A stretch of DNA of 64,000 nucleotides. Origin: Flavobacterium luteolum. GTDB lineage: Bacteria; Bacteroidota; Bacteroidia; Flavobacteriales; Flavobacteriaceae. The first letter of the stretch is position 1, and every line of letters starts with the position of its first letter. Below the pieces are notes generated by a model, which did no database searches, was not told the origin of the DNA, and saw nothing but the letters and a program-made list of their open reading frames with translations. Position numbers and translations under genes: made by a program. Positions 6-23,397 of this stretch are shown here, piece after piece. The stretch is taken from assembly GCF_027111275.1 (NCBI RefSeq), contig NZ_CP114286.1:4884501-4948500 (forward strand). The letters run 5' to 3'.

Positions 6-38
6 AAAACCCGTTTGAGTACATCAAACGGGTTTTTT
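6..38 (+). terminator. Hairpin terminator upstream of hisG (possible his attenuator)
   Basis: Arms at 6-18 and 24-36 are perfectly complementary (13 bp, core ACCCGTTTGA) around a 5-nt loop, followed by a run of T at 33-38. It ends about 52 nt before the hisG start. It could end an upstream gene or be the terminator of a his leader attenuator whose leader peptide lies outside the window. The similar arrangement before ilvD in this window favours the second reading, but the leader itself cannot be seen. Confidence 0.8.
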
Positions 39-14802: not shown

Positions 14803-14810
14803 TACTTTTG
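14803..14810 (+). promoter_or_regulatory. Promoter -7 box of the ilv leader (TACTTTTG)
   Basis: TACTTTTG matches TAnnTTTG exactly and ends 18 nt before the leader peptide ATG, so transcription would start at about 14815 and give a very short 5' end. No TTG is visible at the ideal upstream distance; the position directly ahead of the leader peptide supports the call. Confidence 0.6.
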
Positions 14811-14828
14811 TGACACTAAAAAAAATAA

Positions 14829-14906
14829 ATGATGCAAATCTCAATTATTATTACTTCTGTCGTTGTTGTCAATGTGATTCACACATCTGCATCGGGAATG
14901 TTATAA
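14829..14906 (+). CDS. ilvL: ilv operon leader peptide (Ile/Val-rich, 25 residues)
   Basis: This short frame starts at tandem ATG codons (14829, 14832) and ends at TAA 14904-14906. Its centre reads SIIITSVVVVNVI, giving five Ile and five Val among 25 residues. It lies between leuB and ilvD, just downstream of a TAnnTTTG box and 24 nt before a terminator hairpin that precedes ilvD. That is the standard layout of a ribosome-mediated transcription attenuator. Stalling at the Ile/Val codons would leave GGAATGTT (14895-14902) free to pair with AACCTTCC (14931-14938, 7 of 8 positions) and block the terminator; a ribosome reaching the stop codon would cover that segment. The peptide itself probably has no other function. 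Confidence 0.88.
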   Translation: MMQISIIITSVVVVNVIHTSASGML

Positions 14907-14929
14907 ATATAATTGAAAGACTATATTAC

Positions 14930-14960
14930 AAACCTTCCAAATACTGGAAGGTTTTTTTTT
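14930..14960 (+). terminator. ilv attenuator terminator
   Basis: AAACCTTCCA (14930-14939) pairs perfectly with TGGAAGGTTT (14945-14954) around AATAC, and the T-run continues to 14960. It lies between the Ile/Val leader peptide and the ilvD start at 14991, so it would end transcription when Ile- and Val-tRNA are plentiful. Confidence 0.9.
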
Positions 14961-14990
14961 GAATTAAAATAAAAAATAAATAAAACAATA

Positions 14991-16664
14991 ATGGAATTAA
15001 ATAAGTACAGCAAGACCATCACACAAGATCAAACACAGCCAGCGGCACAAGCGATGTTGTACGGAATTGGTTTAACTGAAGAAGATTTAAAGAAAGCACA
15101 AGTTGGTATTGTGAGCATGGGTTACGATGGTAACACTTGCAACATGCACTTGAACGATTTAGCAAAAGATGTTAAAAAAGGTGTTTGGGATGCAGATCTT
15201 GTCGGACTTATTTTTAATACCATTGGTGTTAGTGACGGAATTTCTAACGGAACTGAAGGTATGCGTTATTCACTAGTTTCTCGTGATGTAATTGCAGACT
15301 CTATCGAAACAGTTGCGGGTGCACAATGGTACGACAGTATTATTGCAATTCCTGGATGTGATAAAAATATGCCTGGAGCTTTAATCGCAATGGGAAGATT
15401 AAATCGTCCGTCTCTTATGGTTTATGGAGGATCTATTCATTCAGGAAAATGGAAAGGAGAATCACTAAATATTGTTTCTGCTTTTGAAGCTTTAGGAAAA
15501 AAAGTAAAAGGAGAAATTACTCCAGAAGATTTTAAAGGTGTTATCCAGAATGCTTGCCCAGGAGCTGGTGCTTGTGGTGGTATGTATACTGCAAACACAA
15601 TGTCATCTGCAATTGAAGCATTAGGAATGAGTTTACCATACAGCTCTTCGAACCCTGCTTTAAGTCAAGAAAAAAGAGATGAATGTCTTGTTGCTGGAGC
15701 TGCTATTAAAATATTATTAGAAAAAGATATTAAGCCAAGAGACATTATGACTCGTAAGGCTTTTGAAAATGCTATTACAATTGTAGCCGTTTTAGGAGGT
15801 TCTACAAATGCTGTTATGCACTTAATTGCAATGGCACATTCTGTTGGTATAAAAATAACTTTGGATGATTTTCAGGCTATTAATGACAGAACTCCTGTTT
15901 TGGCCGACATGAAACCAAGTGGTAAATACATGATGGAAGATGTTCATGAAGTTGGTGGTATTCCTGCTGTAATGAAATACTTGCTGAAAGTGGGGCTTAT
16001 TCATGGAGACTGTTTAACTGTAACAGGAAAAACAGTAGCCGAAAATTTAGCTTCAACTCCAGATTTACAAGACGGACAAGAAGTAATTCATGAAATTCAA
16101 AAAGCATTAAAACCAACAGGAAATATTCAGGTTTTATACGGAAATCTTGCTTCTGAAGGTGCTGTTGCAAAAATCAGCGGAAAAGAAGGAGAGTATTTTG
16201 AAGGGCCGGCGGTTGTATTTGAAGGCGAATTTGAAGTAATTCCAGGTCTTCAAGCCGGGAAAATTAAACCAGGTAATGTAGTTGTAATTAGAGGTTGTGG
16301 ACCAAAAGGAGGTCCAGGAATGCCAGAAATGTTAAAACCAACATCTGCTATTATCGGAGCGGGATTAGGAAGTACTTGTGCTCTAATCACAGACGGTAGA
16401 TTTTCTGGAGGCTCACACGGGTTCGTAGTAGGACACGTTACACCAGAAGCTTATGATGGTGGTGGTATTGCACTAGTAAAAGATGGAGATATAATCGCTA
16501 TTGATGCTGTAAAAAACACAATTGACTTAAAAATTTCTGACGAAGAATTTGCAGCTCGTAAAGCGGCTTGGGTTCAACCAGCGTTAAAAGTTGACAGAGG
16601 GGTTTTGCTTAAATATGCAAGATCAGTATCAAGCGCTTCTACAGGTTGCGTTACCGATAATTAA
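14991..16664 (+). CDS. ilvD: Dihydroxy-acid dehydratase (IlvD)
   Basis: IlvD dehydrates dihydroxy acids to 2-oxoisovalerate and 2-oxo-3-methylvalerate, using an Fe-S cluster. The 557-residue length fits the family. The cluster Cys are visible in [13 protein letters not shown] (about 43-55), [17 protein letters not shown] and [35 protein letters not shown] is the C-terminal signature. It is the first structural gene after the attenuator. Confidence 0.97.
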
Positions 16665-16734: not shown

Positions 16735-18435
16735 ATGATAAAAACAATTTACAAATCATTTTTGTTTCTATTGCCTTTAGTTTCATTTTCTCAAAATGCA
16801 AAAATTGAGAATCTAAAAAAAGAGTATAATCTGCAAGTCAAAAAAAGTGGTTTCATTCTTTTGGAAGATAAGAATAATTCCGAAAATATTAAAATTGCAA
16901 ATGCTAACGGAGATATTGTTTATTCTTACAAGAAGAATAATAAAACTGGATTTGTAAGCGGATTAAACTGCGGGAAATTTTTCACATCAACAGTGAAAGG
17001 AAGCGGTAATGATGGTGGTGGTTATATGATTTTTGAAGGTATGAATGTTGAAATACATGATGCTAAAAATCCAGATGTTGGAACCAAAACCAATTTTAAT
17101 TTCACAAATGGAGTATGGAATCAGCCTTTTGAGTTTTATAGCTTTTTTGACAGTACGGATAAGGTTGGTATAATTAATTCATGTGGCGAAATAATAGTAC
17201 CGGCTACATATAAACGTATTGGAAATTTCAACAAAGTTGGACAAGCATTAGCATATACTGATACAGATTTTACAGTTTTGGATACATTAGGTAAATCTTT
17301 GCTGAAACAGCCATTTAAGCATGGATTGGAAAGAGTCTTTAAGCATGATTATAACGTTTATGTAAAAGACAACCGTGTGAGATCAAGTTTAGATGGTAAA
17401 CAGTTTGGAATATTTGATTTTAAAGAAAACAAACAGTTAATACCAAACAACTATGATGAGATTTCACCTATAGATAAAATGTATTATAGAGTTAAAGAAG
17501 AGAAGGATGCCTTTGCTTATTTAGCAAAAAAGAATGATATAATTGAGGTTATTGATTATTCAAATTTCAAAAATATTCTTCCTATTTCAGTAGGAGCCAA
17601 TGGTATTTCTTCGATATCTGAATTAGGCAATAAATATGTGACTATTTTCTATAAAACAAAAAAAATAATTAGACAAGTAAGTCAAACCGTAAGTAACGAC
17701 GAATCAAAGTATTGCAAGAATGTCTACTACGATGGAAAAGTGCTTTTTGATGCTAAACTAGAAATCGAAGACATTAAGATTTATAAGGATCGTTTGCTTG
17801 TGCTTCAGTTATATAATGGAGGATCAATGATTTATGATTTGCAAAAATCAAGTTTTATTGCAACATTTCCAGAGAATTTAATAACTGTATACGATTATGA
17901 AATGCCAAGATCAATGGTTTTTAAAAAAGAGTATATGTATGATGCAAGAGACACTTTTTTTAATGTAAGTATTCCATGCAAAGGTCCAGGTTGTCAGACA
18001 AGTAATTCAAGTAAAGGAGCTCTTTGCGATTTTAATGGAAAGTTAAGAACAGATTTTTTACAAGATGTTAGTTATATAGTTGTGAAGCTAGATAAAACGC
18101 AAGATAAGTTTCTTTTTTTAACGCATAAAAGACCTGCAGATTTTACTTTGAATTTTAACCTTTACGACAATGACGGAAAGTTAAAACTAGAAAACTTTAG
18201 AATAGAGGATAATCAAAAAGAATATGCTCTGCTTACAAAAGAGAATACTTTGGTTCTTAATGAAGTTATAGAAAAAACTTCTGTCTATGGCAAAACTGCT
18301 TTTGATGTAAGTGGAAATATTATCGGAGAGCGTTATATGTATTTAAGTGATCCAGCTAAAAAAGAAGTAATAAAAACCGAATACACAAAAGAACAAGTCG
18401 AGTCTCAGAAAAACAATAGATTCTTAAAAAAATAA
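16735..18435 (+). CDS. Secreted WG-repeat-like protein inside the ilv gene run
   Basis: A signal peptide (IKTIYKSFLFLLPLVSFSQ) leads into a 566-residue beta-rich protein. Segments such as KVGIINSCGEIIVPATYKRI and QFGIFDFKENKQLIPNNYDE follow the WG-repeat pattern (hydrophobic-Gly-hydrophobic, then a PxxYD/E-like turn), a type that forms beta-propeller-like or solenoid structures. The function is unknown. It lies between ilvD and ilvB on the same strand, with 5 nt between it and the next gene, and no terminator is seen around it. A link to amino acid synthesis is not evident from its sequence. Confidence 0.75.
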   Translation: MIKTIYKSFLFLLPLVSFSQNAKIENLKKEYNLQVKKSGFILLEDKNNSENIKIANANGDIVYSYKKNNKTGFVSGLNCGKFFTSTVKGSGNDGGGYMIFEGMNVEIHDAKNPDVGTKTNFNFTNGVWNQPFEFYSFFDSTDKVGIINSCGEIIVPATYKRIGNFNKVGQALAYTDTDFTVLDTLGKSLLKQPFKHGLERVFKHDYNVYVKDNRVRSSLDGKQFGIFDFKENKQLIPNNYDEISPIDKMYYRVKEEKDAFAYLAKKNDIIEVIDYSNFKNILPISVGANGISSISELGNKYVTIFYKTKKIIRQVSQTVSNDESKYCKNVYYDGKVLFDAKLEIEDIKIYKDRLLVLQLYNGGSMIYDLQKSSFIATFPENLITVYDYEMPRSMVFKKEYMYDARDTFFNVSIPCKGPGCQTSNSSKGALCDFNGKLRTDFLQDVSYIVVKLDKTQDKFLFLTHKRPADFTLNFNLYDNDGKLKLENFRIEDNQKEYALLTKENTLVLNEVIEKTSVYGKTAFDVSGNIIGERYMYLSDPAKKEVIKTEYTKEQVESQKNNRFLKK

Positions 18436-18440
18436 TTTTT

Positions 18441-19508
18441 ATGAAAATAAAAAATACCATAAAATATTTGCCATTAATTTTTATTTCAATCAATGCTTTT
18501 TCACAGTTAAAACCTGAAAAAGTCGATTTAGATAAATTCTCATTCAATGTAAATTATCAAATTCTGCCTGCAAAGTTTGTTGCATTAGAAAAAAGAACTT
18601 TTAGTACAGAAACCGTCATTGGTCCAGATTTTACACCTTTTTATTCAAATAAAGAAACATTGAATAACAAATTAAATCTATACGGATGGAAAAGAAGCGT
18701 CAGATATTCAAACGTTGATATCGAGGTAAAGCTGAAAAGCTTTAAAATGGGAGAACCTAAACTGGAGTCAAAAGTTGATGAATCGAAAGATAAAAATGGA
18801 GTAGTCGTCAAGACCACAAACTATTTTGTAACTGCAGTAATTGAAGCGAAAGGAGTTGCAGTCGTCAAGATCAAAGGAGCATTAACTGAATCTGGAAGCG
18901 ATGAAGAGATTGTTTATGATTTTAACAAAGATTTTGTCTATAAATCGCTTAATGACAACGCTAATTCTGAAGTTGTAAAAGAGGCTTTTAAGAAAGAAAA
19001 AACAGATTTTTATAATGAAAGCATTAAAAATTATGTTGATGGAGTTTTTAGCGATACAAATTATAAACTCAATAAAGTCTACGGATTGGAGCCTACAACT
19101 TATAGAGAGAATTTATGGATTATAGATTCTAAAGATGAAGAAGGAGGAATTCAGAAAGAAGCTTTAGAGGCAGTGAAAGTAATTTTTGCAAAAATGTCTG
19201 CAACTGCACCAATTGATGAAATTGTATCAGATATGAATCCATTAATTGAATATTTTGACTCTTTAAAAACAAAGTATACAGGAAGTGACAAATCAAGTAA
19301 AAAAATCAGATACTCAGCTTATTATAATCTAGGACGAATTTATATTCATTTAGATCAGCCTGAAAAAGCAATTAAAGAAGGAGAAGGATTAATTGCTAAT
19401 GATTATGATAAAAAAGATGGAAAAAAAATTATAGAGGATGCAAACTATGACTTGGAAAATTTTAAAAAATCAACCTACAAGTCAAAACATAATCCCGTAT
19501 TATATTAA
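18441..19508 (+). CDS. Secreted protein of unknown function with C-terminal helical repeat
   Basis: I do not recognise the family. The 355-residue product has a signal peptide (KIKNTIKYLPLIFISINAFSQ), a charged beta-rich middle, and a C-terminal segment (KIRYSAYYNLGRIYIHLDQPEKAIKEGEGLI) that looks like a TPR motif. It follows the WG-repeat-like gene by 5 nt, so the two are almost certainly co-translated and may form a surface or periplasmic pair. Together they split ilvD from ilvB. Confidence 0.75.
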   Translation: MKIKNTIKYLPLIFISINAFSQLKPEKVDLDKFSFNVNYQILPAKFVALEKRTFSTETVIGPDFTPFYSNKETLNNKLNLYGWKRSVRYSNVDIEVKLKSFKMGEPKLESKVDESKDKNGVVVKTTNYFVTAVIEAKGVAVVKIKGALTESGSDEEIVYDFNKDFVYKSLNDNANSEVVKEAFKKEKTDFYNESIKNYVDGVFSDTNYKLNKVYGLEPTTYRENLWIIDSKDEEGGIQKEALEAVKVIFAKMSATAPIDEIVSDMNPLIEYFDSLKTKYTGSDKSSKKIRYSAYYNLGRIYIHLDQPEKAIKEGEGLIANDYDKKDGKKIIEDANYDLENFKKSTYKSKHNPVLY

Positions 19509-19562: not shown

Positions 19563-21251
19563 ATGAGAATATCAGGGGCAGAAGCCGTTATAAGATGTTT
19601 ATTAGCAGAAGGAGTAGATTTAATTTATGGTTACCCAGGCGGTGCTATAATGCCAGTTTACGACGAATTATATAAATTTCAAGATCAATTGCACCATGTT
19701 TTAGTACGTCACGAACAAGGTGCAACACATGCAGCGCAAGGTTATGCGAGAGCAACAGGAAAAGTAGGAGTGGCAATTGCTACTTCTGGTCCAGGAGCTA
19801 CAAATTTAGTTACAGGTATTGCAGATGCTCAAATCGACTCAACTCCGTTAGTATGTATTACAGGGCAAGTTGGAAGACATTTATTAGGATCTGATGCGTT
19901 TCAGGAAACAGATATTATCGGAATTTCAACTCCGGTTACAAAATGGAATTTTCAGGTAACTGAAGCTTCTCAGATTCCTGGAATTATGGCAAAAGCATTT
20001 TATATTGCACGTTCTGGACGTCCAGGACCTGTATTGGTTGATATTACTAAAAATGCTCAGTTTGATGAGTTTGATTTTAGCTATGAGAAATGTACTGGAA
20101 TTAGAAGTTATATTCCAGTACCAAAATTAAACTTAGATAAAGTTGCCGAAGCAGCAGCTTTGATCAATAGCGCTAAAAAACCTTTTATTGTTTTTGGACA
20201 AGGAATTATTCTTGGCGAGGCAGAAGCTGAGTTTAAAGCAGTTGTTGAAAAATCTGGAATTCCTGCGGCTTGGACAATTTTAGGATTATCAGCTTTACCA
20301 ACAGATCATCCTTTAAATGTTGGTATGCTTGGAATGCACGGAAATTATGCGCCAAATTTACTAACAAACGAATGTGATGTTTTAATTGCTTTCGGAATGC
20401 GTTTTGATGATCGTGTTACAGGTAAATTAAGCACTTATGCAAAACAGGCAAAAGTAGTTCACTTTGAAATTGATCCAGCAGAGGTTGATAAAAACGTAAA
20501 AACAGAAATTGCTGTTTTAGGAGATGTAAAAGAATCTTTAGCTGCTTTATTACCATTGTTAGATGCAAAATCTCACGATGCTTGGCACAACGAGTTCAAA
20601 GAATTAAGCAAAGTTGAATTTGATTCAGTAATAAAAGAAGAATTAAATCCAACTAACGGTAAAGGAATTTCGATGGGAGAAACTATCGAAATGATAAACA
20701 AACACTCAAAAGGAGACGCAATCATTGTTTCAGATGTTGGTCAGCACCAAATGTTTGCTTGTCGTTATGCTAAATTCAATTCGACTAAAAGTAATATTAC
20801 TTCGGGAGGTTTAGGAACTATGGGATTTGCATTGCCTGCTGCGATTGGAGCAAAAATGGGAAAACCCGAACGTGAAGTAGTAGCGATTATTGGTGATGGA
20901 GGCTTCCAAATGACAATTCAGGAACTTGGAACTATTTTCCAGACTCAGGTTCCAGTGAAGATTGTTATTCTAAACAATGAATTCTTAGGAATGGTTCGCC
21001 AATGGCAGGAATTATTCTTTGATAATAGATATGCTTCAACAAAAATGATTAATCCAAACTTCATTGCAATTGCTGAAGGTTATCATATCAAATCTAAAAA
21101 AGTTACACAGCGTGAAGATTTAGATGCAGCGGTCGCTGAGATGCTGGCTTCAAAAGATTCGTATTTCTTAGAAGTTGTAGTCGAAAAAGAAAATAATGTT
21201 TTCCCAATGATTCCAACAGGAGCTTGTGTATCAGAAATTAGATTAAGTTAA
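19563..21251 (+). CDS. ilvB: Acetolactate synthase large subunit (IlvB)
   Basis: This TPP- and FAD-dependent enzyme makes acetolactate or acetohydroxybutyrate from pyruvate. The 562-residue protein shows GYPGGAIMPVYDEL near 21-34, the catalytic Glu in VRHEQGATHAAQGYARATG, a central FAD-binding domain, and the C-terminal TPP motif GDGGFQMTIQELGT with NNEFLGMVRQWQELFF. Its regulatory subunit follows as ilvN. Confidence 0.97.
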   Translation: MRISGAEAVIRCLLAEGVDLIYGYPGGAIMPVYDELYKFQDQLHHVLVRHEQGATHAAQGYARATGKVGVAIATSGPGATNLVTGIADAQIDSTPLVCITGQVGRHLLGSDAFQETDIIGISTPVTKWNFQVTEASQIPGIMAKAFYIARSGRPGPVLVDITKNAQFDEFDFSYEKCTGIRSYIPVPKLNLDKVAEAAALINSAKKPFIVFGQGIILGEAEAEFKAVVEKSGIPAAWTILGLSALPTDHPLNVGMLGMHGNYAPNLLTNECDVLIAFGMRFDDRVTGKLSTYAKQAKVVHFEIDPAEVDKNVKTEIAVLGDVKESLAALLPLLDAKSHDAWHNEFKELSKVEFDSVIKEELNPTNGKGISMGETIEMINKHSKGDAIIVSDVGQHQMFACRYAKFNSTKSNITSGGLGTMGFALPAAIGAKMGKPEREVVAIIGDGGFQMTIQELGTIFQTQVPVKIVILNNEFLGMVRQWQELFFDNRYASTKMINPNFIAIAEGYHIKSKKVTQREDLDAAVAEMLASKDSYFLEVVVEKENNVFPMIPTGACVSEIRLS

Positions 21252-21257
21252 GAAAAA

Positions 21258-21325
21258 AGTTTCAGGTTTCCAGTTTCAGGTTTCAATCCCGATAGTCATC
21301 GGGGGTAAAACATGAAACTTGAAAC
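21258..21325. repeat. GTTTCAGG/CTTGAAAC inverted repeat with CCCGATAGTCATCGGG core
   Basis: GTTTCAGGTTTCCAGTTTCA on the left and CATGAAACTTGAAAC (21311-21325) on the right flank a near-palindromic core CCCGATAGTCATCGGG (21288-21303). The core is a variant of CCCGATAGCTATCGGG at 40085 and 40183, and the arms belong to the family after hisI. The element lies between ilvB and ilvN inside the operon. Confidence 0.65.
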
Positions 21326-21345
21326 AAATAAAACTAAAAAAACAA

Positions 21346-21867
21346 ATGGAAGATAAAACATTTACCATATCGGTATACTCAGAAAATAATGTGGGTTTAT
21401 TAAATAGAATATCAGGAATATTCTTAAAGCGTCACATTAATATATTAAGTCTAAATGTTTCAGAATCAGAAATTGAGAACGTTTCAAGATTTATCATCGT
21501 AGTAAATACGACAGAAAAATGGGTTCAGAATATTGTTGGACAAATTGAAAAACAAATTGAAGTTATAAAAGCATTTTATCATACAGATGAAGAGACTATT
21601 TTCTTAGAAAATGCTTTGTTTAAAATTGCTTCAAGTTTGTTGTTTGATGAGAAACAAATTCAGAATATTATTAAAGAGAGCCAGTCTACAATTGTGACAG
21701 TTTCTCGTGATTTCTTTGTGATTTCAAAATCAGGAAGACGTTCTGAAATTGAAGAATTATACCAAAAGTTCAAACCATACGGAATTATGCAGTTTGTACG
21801 TTCGGGAAGAATATCAGTTTCTAAACAAAAAATGGAGATTTCTTCTTTATTAGAAACCTTTAAATAA
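21346..21867 (+). CDS. ilvN: Acetolactate synthase small (regulatory) subunit (IlvN)
   Basis: This subunit confers valine feedback control on IlvB. The N-terminal ACT domain is recognised from KTFTISVYSENNVGLLNRISGIFLKR, with the Gly in VGLLNRI expected near the valine site. The C-terminal ALS_ss_C-like part (about 80-173) follows. I start it at the ATG at 21346; an in-frame TTG at 21319 lies inside the repeat arm and would add a Lys-rich tail. The product is 173 residues, a usual length for this subunit. Confidence 0.93.
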   Translation: MEDKTFTISVYSENNVGLLNRISGIFLKRHINILSLNVSESEIENVSRFIIVVNTTEKWVQNIVGQIEKQIEVIKAFYHTDEETIFLENALFKIASSLLFDEKQIQNIIKESQSTIVTVSRDFFVISKSGRRSEIEELYQKFKPYGIMQFVRSGRISVSKQKMEISSLLETFK

Positions 21868-21927
21868 TAAAATCTTAGTTATATATAATCAATATTAAAT
21901 TTCATTTCATTAAATATTAAAACAAAA

Positions 21928-23397
21928 ATGGCAAATTATTTCAATACATTACCACTTAGATTACAATTAGAACAATTAGGAGTTTGCGAATTTATGGAGC
22001 AATCAGAATTTGCAGACGGAATTGCAGCATTAGCTGGAAAAAAAGTTGTAATTGTTGGTTGTGGAGCACAAGGTTTGAATCAAGGTTTAAACATGAGAGA
22101 CTCTGGTTTAGACATTTCTTATGCATTGCGTGCAGATGCAATTGCAGAAAAAAGAGCTTCTTATAAAAATGCAACTGAAAATGGTTTCAAAGTAGGAACT
22201 TATGAAGAATTGATTCCAACTGCAGATTTAGTTTGTAACCTTACACCAGACAAACAACATACAGCTGTGGTAACTGCTATTATGCCATTAATGAAACAGG
22301 GTTCTACTTTATCTTACTCTCACGGATTCAACATCGTAGAAGAAGGGATGCAGATTCGTAAAGACATCACTGTTATTATGTGTGCTCCTAAATGTCCAGG
22401 TTCTGAGGTACGTGAAGAGTATAAAAGAGGATTTGGTGTTCCAACTCTTATCGCAGTTCACCCAGAAAATGATCCAAACGGATTTGGTTTAGATCAAGCA
22501 AAAGCTTACGCTGTAGCAACTGGAGGACACAGAGCAGGAGTTTTAAGATCATCTTTCGTAGCTGAAGTAAAATCAGATTTAATGGGTGAGCAAACTATTC
22601 TTTGTGGTTTACTTCAAACTGGATCTATTTTATGTTTCGATAAAATGGTTGAAAAAGGAATCGATGCTGCTTACGCTTCTAAATTAATCCAATACGGATG
22701 GGAAACTATCACTGAAGCTTTGAAACACGGTGGTATTACAAATATGATGGATCGTTTAAACAATCCTTCAAAAATTGAAGCTTACGAATTAGCTGAAGAA
22801 TTGAAAGATATCATGCGTCCGTTGTTCCAAAAACACCAAGACGATATCATTTCTGGAGAATTCTCTAGAACTATGATGATTGACTGGGCTAATGATGATG
22901 TTAACTTATTAAAATGGAGAGCTGTAACAGGAGAAACTAACTTCGAAAAAACAGCTCCGCAAGACGCTCCAATCTCAGAGCAAGAATATTTTGACAATGG
23001 AGTGTTAATGATTGCAATGGTAAAAGCTGGTGTTGAATTAGCTTTCGAAACAATGACTGAAGCTGGAATCATTGAAGAATCTGCTTACTATGAGTCATTA
23101 CACGAATTGCCATTAATTGCAAATACAATTGCAAGAAAGAAATTATTCGAAATGAACCGTGTAATTTCTGATACTGCAGAGTACGGATGCTACTTATTTG
23201 ATCATGCATGCAAGCCATTATTGACTGAATTCATGAAAAAAGTTGAAACTAACATTATTGGTAAACCATTTTCAACTTCAAACGGAGTAGATAATGCAGT
23301 ATTGATCGCTGTTAACAAAGAAATTCGTCAACATCCTATCGAAGAAGTAGGAGCTTGGTTGAGAGAGTCTATGACGGCTATGAAAAAAATTGGATAA
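21928..23397 (+). CDS. ilvC: Ketol-acid reductoisomerase, class II (IlvC)
   Basis: IlvC isomerises and reduces acetolactate to dihydroxyisovalerate with NADPH. At 489 residues it is the long class II form (as in E. coli, about 491) with a duplicated helical domain. The dinucleotide motif [21 protein letters not shown] lies near 35-55, followed by [17 protein letters not shown], whose Arg/Lys fit NADPH preference. It closes the ilv gene run. Confidence 0.97.

What the first reader, a model, noticed from the sequence alone, without database searches (positions are those of the whole stretch)
14803..14991. Complete Ile/Val leader-peptide attenuator before ilvD in a Flavobacterium-type genome
Seen directly: a TAnnTTTG promoter box, a 25-residue frame with SIIITSVVVVNVI, and a perfect terminator stem (14930-14954) with a T-run, all within 190 nt of ilvD. 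A competing antiterminator is also visible: GGAATGTT (14895-14902), which overlaps the last leader codons, pairs at 7 of 8 positions with AACCTTCC (14931-14938), the left arm of the terminator. A ribosome stalled on the Ile/Val codons would leave that segment free, while one reaching the stop codon would cover it. A further segment, GATGCAAAT (14831-14839), can pair with ATCTGCATC (14885-14893, 8 of 9). The mechanism is known from enterobacterial ilv operons; its presence here in a non-Shine-Dalgarno, TAnnTTTG genome is inferred.
Basis: partly seen in the sequence, partly recalled or inferred. Interest (0 to 1): 0.85.

Follow-up and report, generated by a model that had tools for sequence, protein, structure and literature searches.

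The report
Isoleucine/valine leader-peptide attenuator before ilvD
In this Flavobacterium-type genome a tiny decoy gene packed with isoleucine and valine codons, followed by an RNA stop signal, most likely switches the isoleucine/valine synthesis genes on only when those amino acids run short; related bacteria carry the same kind of switch, sometimes two or three in a row.

Summary
Of 80 Flavobacterium upstream rows, 56 have both an Ile/Val leader and a terminator near ilvD, 24 neither, none only one. Leaders keep 8-12 Ile/Val codons, the terminator covaries, and in 45 of 45 distinct sequences the left arm can pair with the leader's end in an antiterminator.

Corrections: the conserved start is ATG 14832 (24 residues); the antiterminator is larger than the 8-nt match; the GATGCAAAT/ATCTGCATC pairing holds in a subset only; a covarying hairpin inside the frame (14872-14886) and a candidate segment-1:2 pairing were missed.

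The same genome has his, phe and trp leaders with terminators and a thr leader without a clear one. BCAA leader-terminator units occur in 27 of 60 phylum-sample loci (opposite strand 0 of 60), and 14 loci carry two or three in series. Leader-peptide attenuation was already proposed in F. psychrophilum (PMC9723704): a new member of a known kind. Nothing was tested experimentally.

The parts
14803..14810 (+). TAnnTTTG promoter box (TACTTTTG)
   Evidence: Sequence. Present with small variations ahead of the leader in the aligned Flavobacterium rows (by eye). The promoter consensus itself is recalled, not from a call.
14832..14906 (+). Leader peptide frame MQISIIITSVVVVNVIHTSASGML + TAA (24 residues; ATG 14829 is an extra in-frame start found in a subset of relatives)
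   Evidence: 45 distinct sequences hold 8-12 Ile+Val codons in 20-29-residue frames (other frames: medians 1 and 3).
14841..14848 (+). Candidate segment 1 (UCAAUUAU), may pair with 14909-14916 (AUAAUUGA)
   Evidence: 84.2% of cells paired against 82.1% in shuffles and 37-55% in slid registers; 3 of 8 pairs with a change on both sides. Probability 0.99 without a ribosome before the left arm is made. Against: a shuffled-segment duplex test is weak (12 of 45 sequences at 10 or fewer of 200; the window's sequence 43 of 200).
14872..14886 (+). Hairpin inside the leader frame (AUGUG AUUCA CACAU), possible pause hairpin
   Evidence: 90% of cells paired, 4 of 6 pairs with changes on both sides, covariation score 0.294 against 0.106 shuffled; slid registers 16-65%.
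14895..14911 (+). Antiterminator 5' arm (segment 2): GGAAUGUU + AAUAUA, overlapping the last leader codons and the stop
   Evidence: Fold of the stretch from the frame hairpin to the left arm: 7 or more left-arm bases pair with the leader's end in 40 of 45 distinct sequences, 5-6 in the other five.
14922..14938 (+). Antiterminator 3' arm (segment 3): UAUAUU + AACCUUCC, shares AACCUUCC with the terminator left arm
   Evidence: upper stem 92.2% of cells paired, 90.6% in shuffles, 22-61% slid; few changes.
14930..14960 (+). Intrinsic terminator: stem 14930-14954, T-run to 14960
   Evidence: inner seven pairs 45 of 45, with T-A/C-G (23/21) and C-G/A-T (40/5) exchanges; next two pairs 41 of 45.
14991..16664 (+). 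ilvD, dihydroxy-acid dehydratase, first controlled gene
   Evidence: TIGR00110 above cut-off.
19563..23397 (+). ilvB, ilvN, ilvC, likely the rest of the controlled genes
   Evidence: TIGR00118, TIGR00119, TIGR00465 above cut-off. That they form one transcript with ilvD is inferred.

Best explanation
The stretch is a ribosome-mediated transcription attenuator of the ilv operon. RNA polymerase starts just after the TAnnTTTG box and a ribosome begins the 24-residue leader at 14832. If charged tRNA-Ile or tRNA-Val is scarce, the ribosome stalls on the Ile/Val codons (14838-14879). Segment 2 (14895-14911) is then free to pair with segment 3 (14922-14938); this takes up the terminator's left arm, and transcription runs into ilvD. 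If both are plentiful, the ribosome reaches TAA 14904 and covers segment 2. The terminator 14930-14954 then forms and transcription stops. Shown here: the conserved anatomy, covariation of the terminator and of the frame hairpin, and mutually exclusive folds. Inferred: the start of transcription, translation of the leader, stalling, and the response to starvation. With no ribosome, a candidate segment-1:2 pairing may favour termination; this step is the least certain.
For: Leader and terminator go together: 56 both, 24 neither, 0 mixed of 80 rows. Ile/Val codons are kept while the sequence drifts. The terminator covaries. In 45 of 45 distinct sequences the left arm pairs with the leader's end when the right arm is absent (5 or more bases; 7 or more in 40). 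Masked folding gives the expected contrast between a stalled ribosome and one on the stop codon. The controlled genes make Ile and Val. In other Bacteroidota with different sequences, in 51 units that I chose from the scan hits, the leader stop lies 17-36 nt (median 25) before the terminator; in 42 of 51 at least 6 left-arm bases pair upstream, and in 27 of these at least 4 partners lie in the end of the leader frame (no shuffle control). The same genome has amino-acid-specific leaders before hisG, trpE, the prephenate dehydratase gene and a long-frame aspartate kinase gene.
Against: No expression or starvation data. Single-sequence energetics of the antiterminator are unremarkable for the window (17 of 200 shuffles as stable; only 11 of 45 sequences at 2 or fewer of 200). 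Exchanging 5' and 3' halves between terminator classes gave mixed results. The antiterminator upper stem is nearly invariant, so covariation says little about it. The masked folds give the antiterminator also without any ribosome once the left arm is made (0.92), and at full-length equilibrium the terminator wins in every state modelled, so the switch must be kinetic. Fifteen fetched loci of relatives in which ilvD follows leuB have no such element within 2.7 kb upstream (L168-L182; L182 holds only 1.7 kb).
Confidence: 0.9

Rival explanations
1. An ordinary terminator after leuB plus a promoter for ilvD; the short frame is chance.
For: A terminator after leuA-leuB would be unremarkable, and some relatives have neither frame nor terminator.
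Against: The frame's codon bias, its agreement with the terminator (both present or both absent) in 80 of 80 rows, the shared left arm and 0 of 1000 shuffles. The terminator also lies downstream of the ilvD promoter box.
Confidence: 0.03
2. The element is a metabolite- or tRNA-sensing RNA (riboswitch or T-box) that works without leader translation.
For: Terminator/antiterminator anatomy is shared with such RNAs (recalled).
Against: No Rfam family reaches its cut-off in the window. The best weak match is Phe_leader, 31.8 bits against a cut-off of 55, over 14908-14960. Neither kind would need a run of Ile/Val codons.
Confidence: 0.03
3. The covarying palindrome 14872-14886 is a DNA operator for a repressor, which adds to or replaces attenuation.
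For: Palindromes such as TGTGATTATCACA are symmetric also as DNA.
Against: It changes to TTGTTG/CAACAA and CGTAA/TTACG with pairing kept, as expected of an RNA stem, and the rest of the attenuator stays unexplained.
Confidence: 0.05
4. The leader acts mainly through translation (reinitiation or coupling to ilvD), not through termination.
For: Reinitiation after leader genes close to the next gene is proposed for many groups, Bacteroidetes among them (PMC4833913, passages seen).
Against: 84 nt separate the leader stop from ilvD, against 11-14 bp in that proposal for Bacteroidetes, and a conserved terminator lies between.
Confidence: 0.03

Closest known systems
Enterobacterial leader-peptide attenuators of the ilv, his, thr, phe and trp operons (recalled)
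   Same: Cognate-codon leader, terminator, competing antiterminator at the end of the leader frame, biosynthetic operon downstream.
   Different: No Shine-Dalgarno-like sequence seen before the leader, a TAnnTTTG box, ilvD as the first gene, an extra covarying hairpin in the frame, and segment 1:2 only a candidate. No Rfam leader family reaches its cut-off.
Leader-peptide attenuation proposed in Flavobacterium psychrophilum (PMC9723704; section 19 read, other passages seen)
   Same: Same genus; [quoted passage not shown] conserved 5' elements named at pheA and hisG among others.
   Different: The section does not name ilv, and 'ilv' does not occur in the main text. Its supplementary tables could not be read here.
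Corynebacterium ilvBNC attenuator (PMC10272879, PMC11857589; search listing only, with the start of the abstracts)
   Same: A BCAA-operon attenuator outside the enterobacteria.
   Different: Another phylum and another first gene; details not compared.
Tandem attenuators of Salmonella mgtCBR (PMC3641672; abstract and section list seen)
   Same: Two short frames act in one mRNA leader.
   Different: Those respond to ATP and to proline-tRNA charging. The serial units found here in relatives all carry BCAA codons, each with its own terminator. The window has a single unit.

Membership tests
Ribosome-mediated transcription attenuators of amino-acid operons | Short leader frame rich in codons of the regulated amino acids, kept in relatives | tested here: met
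   8-12 Ile+Val codons in each of 45 distinct leaders; 56 of 80 rows.
Ribosome-mediated transcription attenuators of amino-acid operons | Intrinsic terminator between leader and first gene | tested here: met
Ribosome-mediated transcription attenuators of amino-acid operons | Antiterminator sharing the terminator's left arm, with its 5' arm where a ribosome at the stop codon would cover it | tested here: met
   (45 of 45 distinct sequences, with differences in detail in five ACTCCC-type sequences and in L146). Energies alone are weak.
Ribosome-mediated transcription attenuators of amino-acid operons | Segment 1:2 (anti-antiterminator) pairing in the untranslated leader | tested here: inconclusive
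Candidate 14841-14848/14909-14916: 84.2% of cells against 82.1% shuffled and 37-55% slid; weak in a duplex shuffle test.
Ribosome-mediated transcription attenuators of amino-acid operons | Biosynthetic operon of the same amino acids downstream | tested here: met
   ilvD, ilvB, ilvN, ilvC.
Ribosome-mediated transcription attenuators of amino-acid operons | Leader is translated and readthrough rises on starvation | not testable with these tools
   Needs RNA and ribosome data.
T-box or riboswitch | Match to a described family | tested here: not met
   No family at its cut-off in the window; none of these among the eight weak matches at E up to 10 around the leader.
Rfam leader families (Phe_leader and the like) | Score at the family's cut-off | tested here: not met
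   Phe_leader 31.8 bits against 55.

The most novel reading that the evidence does not exclude
The window's element is one module of a Bacteroidota-wide class of BCAA attenuators that multiplies into serial cascades. Thirteen loci hold two units in a row and a fourteenth, a Flavobacterium (L185), holds three, the first of which resembles the window's. Each unit has its own leader and terminator, with 7-29 nt from one terminator to the next ATG and no TAnnTTTG box in that gap. Polymerase would have to pass each stage in turn, so leakage falls multiplicatively and the response to Ile/Val shortage becomes steeper.
Probability: 0.6. Interest if true: 0.65.

Novelty: new member of a known kind. Interest (0 to 1): 0.5.

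Why it matters
Attenuation by leader peptides is a textbook case from enterobacteria, with Shine-Dalgarno ribosome recruitment (recalled). Here a complete comparative case stands in a genus described as lacking Shine-Dalgarno sequences (PMC9723704, passage), and the same genome has leaders of this kind for five amino-acid pathways. That makes the coupling of transcription and translation in Bacteroidota testable at a defined site, and the serial arrays in relatives offer natural single, double and triple versions of the same switch.

Tried and rejected
A riboswitch or T-box was considered and set aside. A leader before leuA in our genome was sought by eye: none seen. Of the 24 rows without a leader near ilvD, 15 were followed up with longer stretches (L168-L182): none in the last 2.7 kb; hits further up in L168-L170 look like gene ends. 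Four more have their leader further up (L183, L184, L185, L187); L186 showed none; L005, L108, L120 and L148 were not followed further. The leuC region of our genome gave no leader. The thr leader has no clear terminator.

Energy tests of the antiterminator gave weak single-sequence support and the half-swap test was mixed; the segment-1 duplex test was weak; told as evidence against. My first scan missed the first unit of the triple array; found on reading the sequence and by wider limits. One apparent double (L206) has a first unit that looks like coding sequence, and one (L022) shares a single terminator; neither is counted. L060 is counted from looser scans. For one search I left out 7 of the 49 hits (L022 second, L025, L048, L050, both of L052, L067) and added nine units of L183-L195. 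L188 and L213 are near-identical; a few rows and loci are probably one genome met in two searches. In L185 a TATTTTTG stands between the first leader and its terminator, so a second start there is not excluded.

Literature: nine searches. Their listings showed no ilv leader attenuator in Bacteroidota and no serial BCAA attenuators, but only open-licence papers are held and the listings are capped. PMC10219788 was searched for Bacteroid, Flavobacter, ilv and tandem: no occurrence. Lopatovskaya et al. 2010, a survey of attenuation seen only in a reference list, could not be read.

Full report
Setting. The window lies in a genome held as one contig of 5.36 Mb. Genes named by NCBIfam models are leuA 12379, leuB 13602, ilvD 14991, two frames without a match, ilvB 19563, ilvN 21319 and ilvC 21928. 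A TAnnTTTG box, a short frame and a terminator stand in the 270 nt between leuB and ilvD.

Conservation. I collected 80 upstream rows: the window, ten loci, and 69 places from 68 of the 79 other genus genomes that matched ilvD (150 searched, 80 with a match including our own). Near ilvD (leader start within 260 nt, terminator within 200 nt), 56 rows hold an Ile/Val leader and a terminator, 24 hold neither, and none holds only one (recounted). Of the 24, 15 were followed further up without finding one (0 of 15; the last one holds only 1.7 kb), four have a leader 1-1.4 kb up (L183, L184, L185, L187), one more showed none (L186) and four were not followed. The gene between leader and ilvD in L185 is ilvE above cut-off. 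The 56 rows give 45 distinct sequences. Their leaders are 20-29 residues long with 8-12 Ile+Val codons, against medians of 1 and 3 in the other frames. The ATG shared by the aligned leaders is 14832, so the leader is most likely MQISIIITSVVVVNVIHTSASGML.

RNA structure. (a) Terminator: the inner seven pairs form in 45 of 45 sequences, with exchanges on both sides. (b) Antiterminator: GGAAUGUU/AACCUUCC continues through a small internal loop into AAUAUA/UAUAUU. In the minimum-energy fold of the stretch from the frame hairpin to the left arm, 7 or more left-arm bases pair with the leader's end in 40 of 45 sequences and 5-6 in the five of the ACTCCC type; L146 has a different upper helix. The upper stem is 92.2% paired but nearly invariant (90.6% in shuffles). 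Energies alone are weak evidence (mean z -2.4; 11 of 45 at 2 or fewer of 200 shuffles; the window 17 of 200), and a half-swap test was mixed. (c) Hairpin 14872-14886 inside the frame: 90% of cells paired, 4 of 6 pairs with changes on both sides, far above slid registers. (d) Candidate segment 1:2, 14841-14848 with 14909-14916: 84.2% of cells, against 82.1% in shuffles and 37-55% slid; a duplex test against shuffled segments is weak (12 of 45 at 10 or fewer of 200; the window 43 of 200).

Switch. In folds with a ribosome footprint of 30 nt masked, once the left arm is made, the antiterminator's lower stem has probability 0.92-0.98 with the ribosome on codons Ile5, Ile7, Val10, Val13 or Ile16, and 0.00 with it on the stop codon. 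Without a ribosome, segment 1:2 dominates before the left arm is made (0.99), but the antiterminator takes over afterwards (0.92). With the whole terminator made, the terminator wins in all seven states, so the outcome must be kinetic. The footprint and the start at 14816 are assumptions.

The same genome. Leaders were also found before hisG (MISIQLHHHHLHYCSQAMC), prephenate dehydratase (MASNRFYFSNNFYFFFSRSQDCAMVI), a long-frame aspartate kinase (MKSNSIKYQSTIITAQTGVAIAATIITTTTTTTP) and anthranilate synthase (MRTILNNTWWWSNLRQTS). All but the Thr one have a clear terminator. The his terminator is at window 6-36.

Other Bacteroidota. Of the 80 loci (biased to relatives of our ilvD), 48 have a BCAA leader with a terminator; opposite strand 0 of 80. 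In a phylum sample (158 genomes searched, 117 with a match) I fetched 60 of the 65 places with E below 1e-180, from 59 genomes: 27 of 60 have it, opposite strand 0 of 60. In 51 units that I chose from the hits, the distance from stop to terminator is 17-36 nt (median 25); in 42 at least 6 left-arm bases pair with upstream sequence, and in 27 of these at least 4 partners lie in the last 30 nt of the leader frame (no shuffle control).

Serial units. Fourteen loci hold two or three units: L035, L037, L053, L060, L068, L183, L184, L185 (three), L188, L192, L194, L213, L215, L244. They come from 169 scanned loci (80, 29, 60 of the phylum sample), some of which overlap. The gap from terminator to next ATG is 7-29 nt, with no TAnnTT[T/C]G match in any of the 15 gaps; 10 of 14 have such a box within 70 nt before the first leader. 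Only the gaps were tested in all; in seven loci whole units were scanned, and L185 has a match inside its first unit. The first unit of L185 (MKNLSIIPSIIIVNVIITSARGML, with ATGTGATTATCACAT and GGGGAATG) is of the window's type.

Literature. PMC9723704 (section 19 read) proposed leader-peptide attenuation before amino-acid operons in F. psychrophilum and named conserved 5' elements, pheA and hisG among them. For B. thetaiotaomicron, short frames 'reminiscent of leader peptides' were noted (PMC7366714, passages). [quoted passage not shown] I found no ilv case in Bacteroidota in the listings of nine searches of the open-licence library.

Verdict. By comparative evidence the window's element is a real, complete and conserved leader-peptide attenuator: a new member of a known kind. 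The serial arrays in relatives are the most novel part and are outside the window.

Noticed in passing
window 6-36, with leader at L161:520-579 just outside the window: His-leader attenuator (MISIQLHHHHLHYCSQAMC) before hisG; its terminator is the first feature of the window.
   Followed up: partly
L163 (phe), L164 (thr), L167 (trp), own genome: Phe/Tyr-, Thr/Ile- and Trp-rich leaders before the matching biosynthetic genes, each preceded by a TAnnTTTG-like box (phe TACATTCG); no clear terminator seen for thr.
   Followed up: partly
L035, L037, L053, L060, L068, L183, L184, L185, L188, L192, L194, L213, L215, L244: Two or three BCAA leader-terminator units in series ahead of ilv genes.
   Followed up: partly
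L035 and L037 upstream of the first leader: The TAnnTTTG box ends about 5 nt before the leader ATG, so these leaders may be translated from leaderless or nearly leaderless mRNA.
   Followed up: no
L168-L182: Flavobacterium loci in which ilvD follows leuB closely and neither leader nor terminator is found, perhaps natural losses of the switch.
   Followed up: partly
window 16735-18435 and 18441-19508: Two frames without NCBIfam match sit between ilvD and ilvB on the same strand.
   Followed up: no
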